Below are positions 6,617-60,516 of a stretch of DNA of 64,000 bases, piece after piece (the first letter of the stretch is position 1; every line of letters begins with the position of its first letter). A model generated the notes under the pieces. That model saw nothing but the letters and a program-made list of their open reading frames with translations, was not told the DNA's origin and made no database searches. The DNA lies in assembly GCF_009829915.1 (NCBI RefSeq), contig NZ_SZZW01000001.1, positions 310,001 to 374,000 of the forward strand. Direction: 5' to 3'. The DNA comes from Pantoea sp. Nvir (GTDB lineage: Bacteria > Pseudomonadota > Gammaproteobacteria > Enterobacterales > Enterobacteriaceae). The translations under genes were made by a program, and so were the position numbers.

Positions 6617-8077
6617 CTAGTGTCGTCCCACGTATGGCCTATAGACCCTGACGTTCTTAAAACCTTGAGCGCGTAGGTGCAGTGCTTGTAATTTACTCAT
6701 AATACCGTGTGTACAGTAAAGCAACCAATTTTTGCTTTGATCGAGTTCACTGAACTGAGTGCTGAGTCTGTAGAATGGTAGCGACTTTACCTGTGTATTC
6801 TCCAAGGTCAGCGGTTTTTCTTCCTGCTCCTCAATAGAACGAATGTCTAGCACGATATCATCTTTACTTAAAGAGTCCACTGTTTCCACCTCTATTACTT
6901 CTTCAGTTCGCTCGGCTATATCATGGATATCAATGTTATTTGCCTCTTCTACCACACGCTGTAAAACAGCATAATCCAAGTTCTGTTCTTGCGATTCAAT
7001 CGTTGTCTCCACTGCTTTCACTGTCGGGCTTTTAGAAAAAACTCCGCAATATTCCGGTATAGTAAGGGCAAAACCCTCCGTACCAATTTCACGAGCTACC
7101 TTGATGATATGCTCTTTATCGTAAGAAATCAAAGGACGCAGAATGAGAGTTTTGGATGCATTATCGATAATGCGTAAATTAGTTAGTGTCTGACTAGACA
7201 CTTGACCCAGTGCCTCGCCAGTTACCAGAGCTTGCACACCGTAACGCTCAGCTACCATTGAGGCAGCCCGCACCATCATACGCTTCAACACGACTCCCAT
7301 CTGTCCATCATCTACTTTTTCCATAATTTCTCTGACTACCGGCTCGAAGTTGATCGCCACAAAACGTACTCGATGCGAGCGTCCAAATCGATTCCAGAGA
7401 TAGTACGCTACCTGACGTACACTAATTTCATGTATCAAACCACCGAGGTTAAAGAAGCAGTAGTGAACACGGCAGCCACGGCGCAGCATCATATAACTAG
7501 AAACACTGGAGTCGAAGCCGCCGGAGATCAGAGATAGTACATCCTCTTGAGTACTGATTGGTAGTCCACCTAGCCCGGCATAACGACCAATTACTAATAG
7601 CAGGCGATTATCCTCGATTTTTAGATGTACAGTGACGTCGGGCTTTTTGAGTTGCACCTTTGCACTATCAATATGCTGATTTAAACCACCACCTACGTAT
7701 CGTTCTACGTCCTGCGAGCAAAATTCATGGCTACCTCTGCGCTTTACTCGTACGCAAAAAGTTTTGTTCTGTAGACTGTCGCCGTAAAGTGCTAGTGTTT
7801 GCTCAAAAATGTCATGTACATCGCTGTAGGGACGATCCTTTACCGATAGTATATGATGAATACCAGGAATACGCGTAAGTTCAGTGATAATTACACTGTA
7901 GAGACTTTTATCTTTTGAACAGACTTCAATATAATCCCAGTGGCACACCACAGAAAGATTGTTGCCAAAGTTTTTTAATATTTTACGGATATTACCATTC
8001 AGTATTTTAATAAAACGTAGTCTAACAGACTGACTTTTAATGGTTATTTCAGGGAATAACTTGATGATAAGCTTCAT
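6617..8077 (-). CDS. thiI: tRNA 4-thiouridine synthase / thiazole sulfur carrier ThiI
   Basis: Transfers persulfide sulfur for 4-thiouridine at tRNA position 8 and for the thiazole of thiamine. In order there are a ferredoxin-like/THUMP region (1-170), a PP-loop ATPase with [12 protein letters not shown], and a C-terminal rhodanese domain with the active loop CTHGIMS, which keeps the catalytic cysteine. The upstream ATG at 8083 is possible, but [19 protein letters not shown] matches the E. coli N-terminus, so 8077 is preferred (486 residues against 482). A few extra residues (YVGRH) extend the C-terminus. Confidence 0.95.
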
Positions 8078-8300
8078 AGTCATACGAATTAAGTGAGTAA
8101 ACTACGCGTTATTATTTAGCTATAAAAAACAATTGACATCATGTGCATCGCCTAATGCCGCACCTCAACTGTAAAAGTATATCACCTTATTGAATGACTA
8201 TTCCTACAAATACAGGCACATTGCTAATTTTACTAAGAAAATGCTCTTTATTACTATGATTAATTACCATATAAATTCTTATACATGAGTCAACTTAAAT

Positions 8301-8501
8301 ATGCAGAAAAAATCCGAATTAAACTTTAATTTTACAACCTTTTTACAGAGTCTAGAAAAGAGACTAAGTGTATTTGAATACGGTATACAACTTACGCAGA
8401 ATAACCAGCATATATTAAAACACATCAAGCTACACGTACATATTCTGTTCAGAAAAGATAAAAGTGCTGATATCAGCACTTTTAAGATGGGAAAAAGTTA
8501 A
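8301..8501 (+). CDS. xseB: Shrunken exodeoxyribonuclease VII small subunit
   Basis: The 66-residue frame begins MQKKSELNFNF and ends with a block (FEYGIQLTQNNQHILKHIK) alignable with E. coli XseB (80 residues). The middle part, corresponding to IVTRLESGDLPLEEALN, is missing, removing much of the first helix and its loop. XseB is the small subunit that multimerises on XseA to make exonuclease VII. The TAA stop shares its A with the ispA ATG (TAATG), so the frame may be kept for translational coupling even if the subunit is poor. It could be a functional minimal XseB or a pseudogene that remains open. No clear ribosome-binding site is seen. Confidence 0.7.
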   Translation: MQKKSELNFNFTTFLQSLEKRLSVFEYGIQLTQNNQHILKHIKLHVHILFRKDKSADISTFKMGKS

Positions 8502-9400
8502 TGAATTTTACTTCCCTTCTAAGCACTTATCTAGAAAGGGTAAACGCCGCTCTATCGCGCTTGTTAGATCAACTACCTTTTCAGAGTTCTCCTTTAGTTA
8601 ATGCCATACGCTACGGAACGCTATTAGGCGGGAAACGCCTACGCCCTTTTCTGGTGTATGCTATAGGCAATATGCTCAATGCGGATCCGGCTAGCCTTGA
8701 TGCTCCCGCCGCTGCTGTTGAATGTATACACGCCTATTCCTTAATTCACGACGACCTGCCTGCAATGGATGATGCTACATTACGCCGTGGTCAACCAACT
8801 TGCCATATTCAATACGGGGAAGATACCGCAATACTTGCTGGTGATGCACTACAGGCACTCGCTTTATCTATTTTGGCCAACGAGCCAATGCCTGGCGTCA
8901 GCGATACAAGTCGTATCGCAATGATTAATGAGTTGTCACACGCCAGCGGAGTAGCAGGTATGTGTGGTGGTCAGGCACTTGATTTAGCTGCAGAAGGTAA
9001 ACGTCTTGAGCTTGAACAACTGGAGCAGATTCATCGCCATAAAACTGGTGCGCTCATACGTGCTGCAGTTCGCCTCGGCTCTTTGACAGCAGGTGCGTGC
9101 GGACGTACCGCTCTACCGGCATTAGACCGCTATGCCGACGCCATTGGTCTCGCTTTTCAGGTACATGACGATATTCTTGATGTAATAGGCGTCAATGCAA
9201 TGACCGGTAAGAAACGGGGCGCTGATCAGAATTTGGGAAAAAATACTTATCCTTCACTGCTAGGACTGCAAAACGCCCGTGCTAAGGCTTGGGAGCTTTA
9301 CCGAGAAGCGCAGAGCGCACTGGATATTCTTGCAACACAATCTTTAGACACAACAGCATTGCAAGAGCTCGCAAGCTTCGTAATTGAACGCGATAAATAA
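8501..9400 (+). CDS. ispA: Farnesyl diphosphate synthase
   Basis: Condenses dimethylallyl and isopentenyl diphosphates to geranyl and farnesyl diphosphate, the precursor for ubiquinone, undecaprenyl phosphate and heme O. The product has 299 residues, the same as E. coli. The first aspartate-rich motif DDLPAMDD is at residues 84-91, the second is DDILDVIG, and the GGKRLRP substrate loop is at 43-49. It is coupled to the xseB stop and followed by dxs 19 bases later, so isoprenoid genes sit together. Confidence 0.97.
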
Positions 9401-52053: not shown

Positions 52054-52728
52054 ATGATCCCTCTACAAGTACCACCTGAAAATGAATCAATATTGATAGC
52101 TCGCGCCCGTGCTTTAGCAGGCCTTCCTTTAGAAGCCCTAGCAAAGGGATTGACGATGCCGGCCGATCTTAAACGCGATAAAGGCTGGGTCGGCATATTA
52201 CTGGAGCGCCACCTAGGTGCCAATGCTGGCAGCAAAGCAAAGCAAGATTTTGCGCATCTCGGCATTGAGCTTAAAACGATTCCGATTGACGCAAAAAAAG
52301 GTAAACCACTGGAGACCACCTTTGTATGTTTTGCACAGCTGACTGGTAACAGCGGTATTACTTGGGAAACTAGCTATGTGCGCCGCAAGCTAGCACGGGT
52401 ACTCTGGATCCCAGTAGAAGGCGACCGTAACCTTCCAATAGCTCAGCGACACGTTGGCTCCCCGCTGTTTTGGAGCCCAAACAAAAAAGAGGAGCAGATG
52501 TTGCGTCAAGATTGGGAAGAACTGATGGATATGATTGTCCTAGGCCAAGTGAAAAGCATTACTGCCCACCATGGTTGTTGTCTACAGATAAGGCCAAAAG
52601 CGGCTAATAGCCGTGCTTTAACTAAAGGAGTTGGTGAACACGGAGAACCGATTATGACACTACCTCTTGGTTTTTATTTGAGAAAAAGCTTTACTGCCTC
52701 TCTTCTGGCGAGTCATTTTAATTTGTAA
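52054..52728 (+). CDS. mutH: DNA mismatch repair endonuclease MutH
   Basis: Cuts the unmethylated strand at hemimethylated GATC sites when activated by MutL, giving strand choice to mismatch repair. The product has 224 residues (E. coli 229). Active-site residues D65, E72 and K74 are kept in [20 protein letters not shown]-like [15 protein letters not shown] and the C-terminal [15 protein letters not shown] block are also present. Its use requires Dam methylation and MutS/MutL, which are not in this window. The ribosome-binding site is weak. Confidence 0.96.
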
Positions 52729-53905: not shown

Positions 53906-53990
53906 TGGTGCCGAAGGCCGGATTTGAACCGGCAAGTATTTCTACGGTTGATTTTGAGTCAACTGCGTTTACCGATTTCGCCACTTCGGC
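53906..53990 (-). tRNA. leuX: tRNA-Leu(CAA)
   Basis: The reverse complement gives an 85-base class II tRNA almost identical to E. coli leuX. It shows acceptor GCCGAAG with GCCTTCGGCACCA at the 3' end, a long variable arm, and anticodon loop CTCAAAA with anticodon CAA. CCA is encoded. It reads UUG codons. leuX is a known integration site for genomic islands in enterobacteria, and the next plus-strand gene is transposase-like. Confidence 0.97.
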
Positions 53991-54829
53991 ACGTGGGGAA
54001 ATTCAGTTAATATACTATTAACTATTAATTATGCAACTGAAAATCACTAAATCTAGAAGATACAACTATTTTTCCCACTGTACATTTCGTGTATATCGCA
54101 TCTTTATTCCCTTCTTTTATTATTCTCACAGAAAGGGAACGGGAGGGGAATGGTCGTTTCGTCCTCTCTTCAATGTTTCTACCTTCTTATTTTGCCCTAT
54201 AAACTGAAATTTTCTAATTTCAAACCTCCACACATATCCACCACTAAAATTTTCTATATATCATATTCTCTTTAAAAGAAAATAAAGAAAAACAAAGTAC
54301 AGGCTTACCTAAACATAATCAGAGTACGAAAAATAAGTTAATCCCAGTCTGAGTATGCTATACTTCCCTTAGGAAGGGATTCAACCATACTTCTGGCAGA
54401 AGTTAGTACGTTTTAAGTTAATTTCAAATTAAACTATGCTTAGTATCCTTGGCAGTCAAAAACTAAAAGAGAAAATAATAGTACACTGAATAACGGTAAA
54501 GACTAATAGCTTAACTTGTAAAACCCAGGTAATAAAAGGTGGATGAAAAGCTAAAAGCCAAAGCTTGTAAGGTACTACCGAAGATATGACAAAAACATAT
54601 TTATGTATAGTGTGATATGGTGCGGATTTCAAGATAAGTTGTCTATCTTTCTCCCCTAAATCATCTGCTACTTTTATTTTATTCCCTGATTACCCCTGTT
54701 TTTTGATACTAGTTTTGAACGTCATTAGGCATTTCACATGAGTCTATTCTCTTGTAAAGTGCCTAGGCACATTTCCACCACCAATCTAACAGCGCTATAG
54801 TGAAGATTTACGCCAACAGGACAGAGCGC
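53991..54829. other. Spacer between tRNA-Leu and the IS110-like ORF
   Basis: About 0.8 kb, AT-rich, divergent genes on the two sides. Apart from the tRNA promoter at its left end I see no feature and no attachment-site-like direct repeat of the tRNA 3' end. Confidence 0.55.
54009..54036 (-). promoter_or_regulatory. Sigma-70-like promoter of tRNA-Leu
   Basis: On the minus strand TTGCAT (54031-54036) and TATATT (54009-54014) are spaced by 16 bases, and the tRNA begins 18 bases after the -10. Spacing and position fit a tRNA promoter. Confidence 0.5.
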
Positions 54830-55465
54830 ATGCAAGATATCAACATTTCGATTTACTTTGATCCTAATCTAATTTTTGCAATTGTACATCAACCAAATAA
54901 CATCTATCTTAGCAAAAAATTCCAGTACGACGATGCGGTTATAGAAGAAATCTATCAGTGGCTCGAACAGTTTACTCCAAACCGTACTCATATTTGCCTA
55001 CTTAAGCACGATACTGCTGATATCCTCGCCGACGAATTAGTGGATAACGGCTACTGCGTCCATCACGTCAGTACCCATCAACTGCTTGAGTGGTTTACCG
55101 CTACTCCCCCTGCTACACCGGATGGCTCACCAGTACGCGCATTACTGCGCTATCTAGAAGAGGAGAATCCAGAGCAATACGTCTCACGCACCCCACAGAT
55201 TGAAACTCTCCTTAATCTATTCGATAATCTAGATGCGCTGGAAGCAGTAGAAGATTGTGACGATGAGGACAGTCTACCAAAAGATGTATTAAGACTGGTA
55301 AAGCAGAGAAAGATTTCTGCGCTTACCGGGGCTCAGAGCCTAATCCCAGCACTCAGTGAACGCATCCGTGAACATCTAATGCGTTATCCGGAATTAATGA
55401 CACCCGAACTTATGGAAGATTTCTTCCCTGAGCTTCTAGAAGCGATAGATCGTCCCAAACACTAA
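54830..55465 (+). CDS. Unrecognised protein resembling the N-terminal domain of IS110-type transposases
   Basis: A GTG at 54800 is possible, but the ATG at 54830 has AGGA 8 bases upstream, giving 211 residues. Pattern by eye: INISIYFDPN at the first catalytic Asp of an IS110 DEDD (RuvC-like) fold, a beta strand LSKKF, helix IEEIYQWLEQF, strand HICLLKHDT, helix ILADELVDNGYCVHHVS, then TPDGSPVRALLRYL and PEQYVSRTPQIETLLNLFDNLDALE. IS110 proteins have equivalents of these (EATG, TDxxDA, LARY, PEIRELRALLxRLDALE). The second and fourth acidic positions look lost (KHDT, TPDGSPV). The frame ends after IREHLMRYPEL, before the SIPGIG domain and catalytic serine. Likely inactive or repurposed; another family is possible. 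Confidence 0.45.
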   Translation: MQDINISIYFDPNLIFAIVHQPNNIYLSKKFQYDDAVIEEIYQWLEQFTPNRTHICLLKHDTADILADELVDNGYCVHHVSTHQLLEWFTATPPATPDGSPVRALLRYLEEENPEQYVSRTPQIETLLNLFDNLDALEAVEDCDDEDSLPKDVLRLVKQRKISALTGAQSLIPALSERIREHLMRYPELMTPELMEDFFPELLEAIDRPKH

Positions 55466-59004: not shown

Positions 59005-60516
59005 ATGGAGTTCAGTATAAAAAGCGGCAGCCCGGAAAAACAGCGTAGTGCTTGCATTGTTGTAGGTGTTTTTGAGCCGCGTCGTTTGTCACCTATCGCA
59101 GAGCAGTTAGATAAGATCAGTGATGGTTATATTAGTGCACTGCTACGCCGTGGCGAGCTGGAAGGAAAGGTAGGCCAAGCACTACTGCTTCATCATGTAC
59201 CCAATATTCTTTCTGAACGCATTTTACTGATTGGATGCGGGAAAGAACGGGAACTAGATGAACGTCAGTATAAACAGGTAATTCAGAAAACTATCAATAC
59301 ATTGAATGATACTGGGTCTATGGAAGCAATCTGTTTCCTGACTGAGCTGCATGTGAAAAGCCGTAATATTTACTGGAAAGTTCGTCAGGCGGTTGAGACC
59401 TCAAAAGAGGCTTGTTATAATTTTGATGAGCTAAAAAGTAATAAGACTGAGCCGCGGCGTCCGATGCGAAAACTTGTGTTTAATGTGCCAACGCGCCGCG
59501 AGCTAACTAGCGGTGAACGCGCCATCCAGCACGGTCTAGCAATCTCTTCCGGTGTGAAGGTTGCAAAAGATCTTAGTAATATGCCGCCGAATATCTGTAA
59601 CGCGCATTACCTTTCCCTACAAGCGAGCAAGCTGGCTAAAGTCTTTAGCAACAAAGTCACCGCAAGTGTTATCAACGAACAGCAAATGAAAGAGCTTGGC
59701 ATGAACGCGTACCTTGCCGTAAGTGCTGGTTCGCAAAACGATGCTCTAATGTCAGTCATTGAGTATAAAGGTAATCCAGATCCTGAAGTACGCCCCATTG
59801 TATTAGTGGGTAAAGGTCTCACGTTCGATTCAGGCGGAATTTCCATTAAGCATGCCGAATCTATGGATGAAATGAAATACGACATGTGCGGTGCGGCATC
59901 GGTCTACGGCGTGATGTGTATAGTGGCTGAGCTGAATCTACCACTTAATGTAGTAGGCGTGCTGGCAGGCTGTGAAAATATGCCGGATGGTAGCTCCATG
60001 CGTCCCGGTGATATCCTGACCACTATGTCGGGCCAAACTGTAGAAGTGTTGAACACTGATGCAGAAGGCCGTTTGGTGCTGTGCGATACGCTTACTTATG
60101 TTGAACGCTTTGAACCCGAAGTAGTAATTGACGTGGCGACACTAACTGGGGCATGCGTGATCGCACTAGGCCATCATATCAGTGGCCTGTTGTCCAATCA
60201 TAACCCTCTGGTGCATGAGCTAATCATCGCTTCTGAACAATCTAGTGACCGTGCTTGGCGTTTGCCTATGGGGGATGAGTACCAAGAACAGCTGGAATCT
60301 AACTTCGCCGATATTGCGAATGTCGGCGGCCGTCCCGGCGGTGTTATTACTGCAGCTTGTTTCTTGTCGCGTTTCACACGCAAATATAACTGGGCGCACT
60401 TAGATATCGCTGGTACTGCTTGGCGTTCCGGTACAGCAAAAGGCGCCACTGGTCGTCCAGTGCCAATGCTATCCCAGTTCCTTCTAAACCGCGCTGGTAT
60501 GAACTATGACGACTGA
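59005..60516 (+). CDS. pepA: Leucine aminopeptidase PepA
   Basis: Hexameric two-metal M17 aminopeptidase; in E. coli it also binds DNA (XerA) at cer recombination sites and the carAB promoter. The product has 503 residues, the same as E. coli. Metal and catalytic residues are all at E. coli positions: K270, D275 and K282 in [16 protein letters not shown]293, and D352, E354 and R356 in [15 protein letters not shown] precedes the ATG. It is followed by holC and valS as in E. coli. Confidence 0.97.

What the first reader, a model, noticed from the sequence alone, without database searches (positions are those of the whole stretch)
54830..55465. Isolated intact ORF resembling a C-terminally truncated IS110 transposase beside tRNA-Leu(CAA)
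Seen: a 211-codon frame with a good ribosome-binding site survives in a 3.7-kb region otherwise without protein genes, next to leuX, a common island integration site. By eye its segment order follows the DEDD domain of IS110 enzymes, with two acidic residues changed and the serine-containing C-terminal domain absent. Inference: a decayed mobile element with one open half, or a RuvC-like domain taken over for a host role. IS110 enzymes work with a bridge RNA, so any retained function could be RNA-related.
Basis: inference. Interest (0 to 1): 0.55.

Follow-up and report, generated by a model that had tools for sequence, protein, structure and literature searches.

The report
Domesticated half of a bridge recombinase
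What looked like a dead piece of a mobile element is a gene that was found in every Pantoea genome examined and is intact in nearly all of them: it keeps the fold of the front part of an RNA-guided recombinase but has lost most of the cutting machinery, so the bacteria appear to have taken it over for a job of their own.

Summary
The ORF (54830-55465, +, 211 aa) is a gene, not debris. All 61 held genomes of its genus (Pantoea, by named relatives) carry it; it is broken in one. It lies between DUF2501 and marC genes (41 and 40 of 43 loci), with TATAGT 34-48 nt before the ATG in 43 of 43 members. dN/dS is 0.043-0.066 in six pairs. In the window it stayed intact while neighbours decayed: 32 of 89 branch changes are nonsynonymous, 63.3 ± 3.5 expected.

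AlphaFold (pLDDT 90.3) gives a RuvC-coiled-coil fold; all 11 Foldseek PDB hits under E 1e-3 are the IS110-family recombinases IS621 and ISCro4, as are both PDB sequence hits under 1e-3. hhalign to 12 IS110 proteins: E 4e-8; column shuffles give nothing.

Three of four DEDD positions are non-acidic family-wide, the Tnp/serine domain is absent, the protein is strongly acidic, no conserved RNA-sized block was seen beside it, and 7 of 7 sister-genus loci lack it. Best reading: a domesticated, catalytically dead, probably dimeric protein-binding scaffold; partner unknown.

The parts
54830..55465 (+). Intact 211-aa gene: dead RuvC-like domain (about 1-118), coiled-coil hairpin (about 121-185), conserved C-terminal tail (about 186-211)
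   Evidence: ORF; orthologues; AlphaFold elements; fold matches to IS621/ISCro4; domain limits are mine
54796..54801 (+). TATAGT, -10-like box; present upstream of the ATG in 43 of 43 family members at 34-48 nt (34 here)
   Evidence: promoter role inferred
54818..54821 (+). AGGA, likely ribosome-binding site, present in 43 of 43
54486..54649 (+). Decayed trace of the upstream DUF2501 gene region (DNA similarity only, 63-65%)
   Evidence: blastn against L021 (E 5e-7) and, over 54486-54595, L022 (E 7e-5); DUF2501 name from Pfam
53906..53990 (-). tRNA-Leu(CAA), leuX (gene name recalled); also near this gene in L021 and L022
55467..56562 (.). Stretch where marC and the cytochrome c/GMC oxidoreductase genes lie in most relatives; no remnant detected here
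   Evidence: (tblastn of neighbours from L021, L022, L025 and blastn of L021, L022 against the window)

Best explanation
The ORF is a host gene that arose from the N-terminal part (RuvC plus coiled coil) of an IS110-group bridge recombinase and became fixed at the base of the genus Pantoea between a DUF2501 gene and marC. Shown: kinship to IS110 recombinases, retention across the genus, purifying selection, absence of the Tnp domain, loss of most of the catalytic site. Inferred: it descends from an IS110 element rather than the reverse, is made from its own promoter, dimerises through the coiled coil as IS621 does, does not cut or rejoin DNA, and works as a stand-alone acidic scaffold that binds one or more host proteins through its RuvC face and its highly conserved tail. 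The partner and the process are not known. My odds: domestication about 0.9; catalytically dead about 0.85; protein-binding dimeric scaffold rather than nucleic-acid binder about 0.45.
For: 61 of 61 held genus genomes; 36 of 36 in an overlapping earlier sample. Neighbours: DUF2501 in 41 and MarC in 40 of 43 named loci. TATAGT box 43 of 43. dN/dS 0.043-0.066 in six pairs, inside the range of four neighbouring genes (0.009-0.145). Window branch: 32 nonsynonymous of 89 against 63.3 +- 3.5 expected; no stop, where 97.8% of 2000 neutral runs gained at least one. Kinship: all 11 Foldseek PDB hits under 1e-3 are IS621 or ISCro4, E 1.3e-9 to 3e-8; VIA-align Z 16.4 over 182 residues; hmmsearch 6.2e-7 and 3.3e-6, next chain 0.22; hhalign 4.2e-8 to 12 IS110 proteins, 1.1e-7 to all 22 frames at hand; 20 column shuffles at E 0.49 or worse; the profile also found a true IS110 recombinase at 7e-8. 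Dead site: IS621 D11, E60, D105 correspond to Y9 (43 of 43), I/L58 (35 + 8 of 43), P101 (42 of 43, T in one); D102 to D98, kept in 43 of 43. Mutating any of the four abolished IS621 recombination (PMC11208158, passages). pI 4.16-4.55 in 43 members against 6.24-10.23 for the first 205 aa of 22 IS110 frames. Gene absent in 7 of 7 sister-genus loci; in two of them (L156, L159) the flanking genes stand side by side.
Against: No functional, expression or interaction data. No member reaches PF01548 in Pfam (0 of 16 at E up to 10), so kinship rests on profiles and a predicted fold. The ten IS110-family frames that I had left out of the first comparison, tested alone, give only E 0.021, probability 2.2%: the likeness is to IS110-group proteins near IS621, not to every branch. 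The reversed profile scored E 0.0066, probability 2.5%, so E-values of that size mean nothing here. The fold match has a large rmsd (11.5 A), so the two domains are probably oriented differently. Acidic residues lie next to two lost positions (D11 in 42 of 43, E59 in 42 of 43), so a rearranged metal site is not strictly excluded. Dimerisation is inferred from IS621 only. The window copy has K at the otherwise invariant E59.
Confidence: 0.6

Rival explanations
1. A decaying IS110 element whose N-terminal half happens still to be open in this symbiont.
For: The surroundings are decayed and the C-terminal domain is missing.
Against: The gene is unbroken in 60 of 61 genus genomes, has fixed neighbours and dN/dS near 0.05. 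The window genome has no PF01548 match.
Confidence: 0.02
2. A dominant-negative regulator: it pairs with IS110 recombinases through the coiled coil and poisons transposition.
For: It keeps the coiled coil that dimerises IS621 (PMC11208158, passages) and lacks catalytic residues; truncated transposase inhibitors are a recalled analogy. 12 of 35 other genus genomes have PF01548 matches.
Against: 24 of 36 genus genomes, the window's included, show no PF01548 match at E 1e-3 and still carry the gene. Identity to IS621/ISCro4 is only 17-19%.
Confidence: 0.08
3. An RNA-guided or RNA-binding role kept from the bridge recombinase, with an RNA encoded elsewhere.
For: IS621 works with a bridge RNA (PMC11208158, passages); Nop5 is a precedent of an inactive RuvC in an RNA-protein machine (PMC12045711, passages).
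Against: No conserved RNA-sized block upstream or downstream (41 loci; 23 intergenic stretches); the Tnp/Nop-like part is absent; net charge -21 to -36. An RNA encoded elsewhere was not searched for.
Confidence: 0.08
4. A working nuclease whose metal site was rebuilt from D11, E59 and D98.
For: D11 in 42, E59 in 42 and D98 in 43 of 43 members.
Against: Both profile alignments put Y9 and I/L58 at the catalytic positions; P101 replaces the fourth acid; the window copy, under selection, has K59.
Confidence: 0.07
5. An already domesticated gene acquired by the Pantoea ancestor from an unsampled lineage, not made in Pantoea.
For: No intermediate between IS110 and this protein was found.
Against: No homologue was found outside the genus, apart from a true IS110 in one genome, in 387 other family genomes, nor in 368 other class genomes, phage or plasmid records. 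These are samples; other phyla were covered only by the pattern-based genome-contig scan, whose 43 loci are all of this group.
Confidence: 0.15

Closest known systems
IS621 / ISCro4 bridge recombinases (IS110 family)
   Same: RuvC fold followed by a coiled-coil hairpin over residues 2-202 of the model (8wt6_A, Z 16.4, rmsd 11.5, 182 residues); only sequence relatives in the PDB under 1e-3.
   Different: No Tnp domain with its catalytic serine, three of four DEDD positions lost, acidic, one place per genome, no flanking RNA-sized conserved block.
Nop5 of box C/D snoRNPs
   Same: Inactive RuvC-like domain used to recruit another protein (fibrillarin), in a protein of the same overall architecture as IS110 (PMC12045711, passages).
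   Different: Nop proteins keep the RNA-binding Nop domain; nothing like it is present here. The likeness is one of principle, not membership, and no comparison with Nop5 was run.
TasR of TIGR-Tas
   Same: RuvC plus helical part; 9mty_B at Z 10.2, rmsd 8.9, 144 residues.
   Different: TasR is an RNA-guided nuclease (PMC12045711, abstract and passages); its Z is far below that for IS621.
RuvC, MOC1 and YqgF/RuvX resolvase-like proteins
   Same: RNase H-like core over about 98-114 residues of the model's first 117 (Z 9-10.7).
   Different: The alignments stop before the coiled coil; Foldseek E-values are worse than 1e-3.

Membership tests
IS110 family recombinase | RuvC-like domain followed by coiled coil | tested here: met
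IS110 family recombinase | DEDD catalytic residues | tested here: not met
   Y9, I/L58, D98, P101 at the four positions by the HMMER alignment
IS110 family recombinase | C-terminal Tnp (Transposase_20) domain with catalytic serine | tested here: not met
   protein ends at 211 aa; no credible Tnp remnant within 2 kb in 44 loci, best E 0.11
IS110 family recombinase | PF01548 match above cut-off | tested here: not met
   0 of 16 members
IS110 family recombinase | flanking bridge RNA | tested here: inconclusive
   no conserved RNA-sized block; no bridge-RNA covariance model was run
IS110 family recombinase | mobility: several copies or varied sites | tested here: not met
   one place per genome in 61 genomes, the broken copy in two adjoining pieces; fixed neighbours
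Domesticated (exapted) host gene | retention at one locus across a clade | tested here: met
   61 of 61 genomes; neighbours in 43 loci
Domesticated (exapted) host gene | purifying selection | tested here: met
Domesticated (exapted) host gene | empty site in sister lineages | tested here: met
   gene absent in 7 of 7 loci examined, flanking genes side by side in two of them
Domesticated (exapted) host gene | a demonstrated host function | not testable with these tools
   needs deletion and interaction experiments
Anti-phage defence protein | match to PADLOC models | tested here: not met
   no match for 3 members at E up to 1; unknown defence proteins are not excluded

The most novel reading that the evidence does not exclude
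A bridge-recombinase body was turned into an important host protein by discarding its cutting and RNA-handling parts and turning acidic: a dimeric RuvC-fold decoy or scaffold, perhaps mimicking nucleic acid to control a DNA- or RNA-handling machine of the cell, and useful enough to survive genome reduction to 1.4 Mb.
Probability: 0.15. Interest if true: 0.8.

Novelty: new variant of a known kind. Interest (0 to 1): 0.55.

Why it matters
Domestication of transposases is well known (recalled), but searches of the held open-licence library for IS110 together with 'domesticated' and 'bridge RNA' (no paper), 'exaptation' (two papers, titles unrelated) and 'domesticated transposase' (no paper) gave no report for IS110, the family behind bridge-RNA editing. 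Box C/D proteins show that an inactive RuvC body can become part of a core cellular machine; this gene looks like an independent and much younger step of that kind, in a genus that can be grown and altered in the laboratory. It also shows that a lone ORF in a decayed symbiont region can be a conserved gene that Pfam does not recognise.

Tried and rejected
Pfam, PHROGs, NCBIfam and PADLOC scans gave only chance-level hits or none. The most frequent Pfam hit, HTH_32 in 5 of 16 members (best E 0.002), does not fit the predicted fold and was not pursued. No match in phage or plasmid records at E up to 1. The G055 hit (E 0.003, 28% over residues 142-210) falls inside a 327-aa frame that looks MoxR-like by eye and was taken as chance; it was not tested further.

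A conserved RNA beside the gene was sought. In 41 loci the upstream alignment shows partial conservation further out, but the intergenic stretch alone (23 loci with DUF2501 within 260 nt) is well conserved only around the TATAGT box and the ribosome-binding site. Remnants of the IS110 C-terminal domain were sought within 2 kb and not found (best of four hits E 0.11), while the same queries gave 64 cross hits in a positive control. A partnership with marC was considered: the two genes are 16-60 nt apart in 23 of 40 loci, but unbroken copies stand without marC in L080 and L081 and in the window, whose genome keeps only paralogues at 35% and 26% identity. So marC is not an obligate partner.

The viral fold library gave generic RNase H/RuvC-like matches, three under E 1e-3. 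Paper searches that led nowhere: (listings only); two searches gave listings from which I read passages of PMC8032781, PMC11208158, PMC12045711 and PMC11208160.

Dropped rows: L079 (broken copy) was left out of the 43-member counts (window plus 42 loci); L048 and L079 were left out of the flank alignment. Alignment A3 holds 12 of the 22 IS110 frames, picked by eye from their N-terminal pattern; one (L098) is shortened. The other ten were tested afterwards, and that result is against a general likeness. In one search I used 7 sister-genus genomes out of the 20 loci returned. My scripts and notes call the upstream gene DUF2780; Pfam says DUF2501. Note 2 gives '23 of 36' for genomes without PF01548; the recount is 24 of 36.

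Full report
What was checked. The frame at 54830-55465 is present, opens with ATG and codes 211 aa. It lies 0.84 kb from tRNA-Leu(CAA) at 53906-53990, minus strand, in a 3.8-kb stretch between a MutH-family ORF and two LptF/LptG-family ORFs (Pfam), where the only other frames of 60 aa or more are four of 63-72 aa. The genome (1,425,354 bases, 11 contigs) has the size and contig number given for SoNv, the Pantoea symbiont of the stink bug Nezara viridula (table passage of PMC8032781); that identification is an inference.

It is a conserved gene. A protein search found it in all 36 genomes of its genus in the sample (own genome included) and, apart from one chance-level hit, in none of 24 genomes of 24 other genera. 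A profile search of the held genus genomes found it in 61 of 61; in 60 one unbroken match covers at least residues 3-211, and in one (G465) it lies in two pieces. By contig coordinates G465 corresponds to L079, a Euschistus servus symbiont. The 43 named loci are mostly Pantoea, with a few records labelled Mixta, Erwinia, Enterobacter or Enterobacteriaceae. In a family-wide sample 6 of 392 genomes matched: five of this genus, and one other (G393) with three matches, of which I read two (L039, L041) as 319-aa frames; L039 carries both IS110 Pfam domains. In a class-wide sample only the own genome of 369 matched.

It sits at one place. In the 43 named loci DUF2501 lies upstream in 41, MarC downstream in 40, cytochrome c and GMC oxidoreductase genes in 38 each within the stretch held (gene names by Pfam). 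leuX is in the same neighbourhood in the two relatives compared, L021 and L022, so it is an older neighbour and not a landing site of this symbiont's copy. From the 20 loci returned with a DUF2501 homologue I chose 7 sister-genus genomes: all 7 stretches have a tRNA-Leu(CAA) and DUF2501, none has this gene; in L159 DUF2501 and MarC, and in L156 DUF2501 and the cytochrome c gene, stand side by side. By their handles these seven genomes were in the sample and without a match there.

It is under selection. dN/dS (NG86) in six Pantoea pairs is 0.043-0.066; four neighbouring genes in five pairs give 0.009-0.145. Window to relatives is saturated at synonymous sites (dS 3.2 in one pair, not computable in the others), so I polarised: of 89 changes on the window branch, at sites where six relatives agree, 32 are nonsynonymous against 63.3 +- 3.5 if the same changes fall at random (minimum of 2000 runs 52); 2.2% of the runs were free of stops, the real gene has none. 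In the window the DUF2501 region survives only as a DNA trace at 54486-54649, and marC and the dehydrogenase genes were not detected. TATAGT and AGGA survive; they are found in 43 of 43 members, the box 34-48 nt before the ATG.

Kinship. The AlphaFold model from 16 sequences has mean pLDDT 90.3 and pTM 0.75, with five strands between residues 4 and 80, long helices at 121-142 and 164-185 and short C-terminal helices. Foldseek against the PDB returns 11 chains under E 1e-3, all IS621 or ISCro4 (1.3e-9 to 3e-8); the next is a YqgF at 2.2e-3. VIA-align gives Z 16.4 (rmsd 11.5, 182 residues) for IS621 and 16.2 for ISCro4, then 10.7 for resolvases over the first 117 residues alone. By sequence the profile finds IS621 at 6.2e-7 and ISCro4 at 3.3e-6, the next chain at 0.22. 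Profile-profile comparison with 12 IS110 proteins gives E 4.2e-8, probability 95%; in a script with other settings 1.2e-9, against 0.0066 (probability 2.5%) for the reversed profile and 0.49 or worse for 20 column shuffles. With all 22 IS110 frames at hand it is 1.1e-7; with the ten frames left out of the first set alone it is 0.021, probability 2.2%. So the likeness is to IS110-group proteins near IS621, not to the family at large. No member matches PF01548 in Pfam.

What was lost. IS621 has RuvC 1-122, a dimerising coiled coil 123-188, Tnp 189-326, catalytic D11, E60, D102, D105 and S241; mutating any of these abolished recombination (PMC11208158, passages). Mapped through the HMMER alignment (I take the chain, 328 aa against 326, to carry two extra N-terminal residues), the four acids fall on Y9, I/L58, D98 and P101. 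In 43 members these are Y 43; I 35 and L 8; D 43; P 42 and T 1. D11 and E59 stand beside two of the lost positions, in 42 of 43 each; the window has K59, the only otherwise invariant residue it breaks. No Tnp domain follows and no credible remnant lies within 2 kb in 44 loci (best E 0.11). The proteins are acidic (pI 4.16-4.55, net -21 to -36), whereas the first 205 aa of 22 IS110 frames have pI 6.24-10.23 and net -3 to +18. The tail is strongly conserved: IREHL, LMTP, FFP and the final H are invariant in 43.

How it may work. Shown: kinship, retention, selection, loss of catalytic residues and of the Tnp domain. Inferred: dimerisation by the coiled coil, no cutting, and binding of host proteins by the RuvC face and tail. 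Nop5 is a precedent of an inactive RuvC that recruits another protein (PMC12045711, passages). The gene needs neither marC (no orthologue found here) nor resident IS110 elements: 24 of 36 genus genomes, the window's included, have no PF01548 match. No RNA-sized conserved block was seen beside it.

Verdict. The finding is real, and its better reading is not a decayed element but a domesticated, catalytically dead part of an IS110 bridge recombinase that every Pantoea genome examined carries. My searches of the held library (listings only) showed no such case for IS110; most subscription papers and preprints are not in that library.

Noticed in passing
window 59563-59757 (-): Rfam match to Yersinia sRNA Ysr276 (106.8 bits against a cut-off of 100).
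   Followed up: no
L079 (Euschistus servus symbiont) and G465:C25:66871-67502: The only broken copy among 61 genus genomes: the gene is in two pieces in a 3.9-Mb symbiont genome, while it is intact in the 1.4-Mb window genome.
   Followed up: partly
L021 about 7510-8690 and L022 13199-14455: In these relatives the leuX side of the locus carries integrase-like frames (by eye), as expected of a tRNA island site; in the window no such frame is seen there.
   Followed up: no
L039, L040, L041 (G393): Three matches to an IS110 recombinase, the only non-Pantoea hits of the family-wide profile search; L039 and L041 read as almost identical 319-aa frames, L040 not read.
   Followed up: partly
window 52054-52728 (+): MutH-family ORF of 224 aa whose Pfam match covers residues 54-153, next to the decayed stretch.
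   Followed up: no
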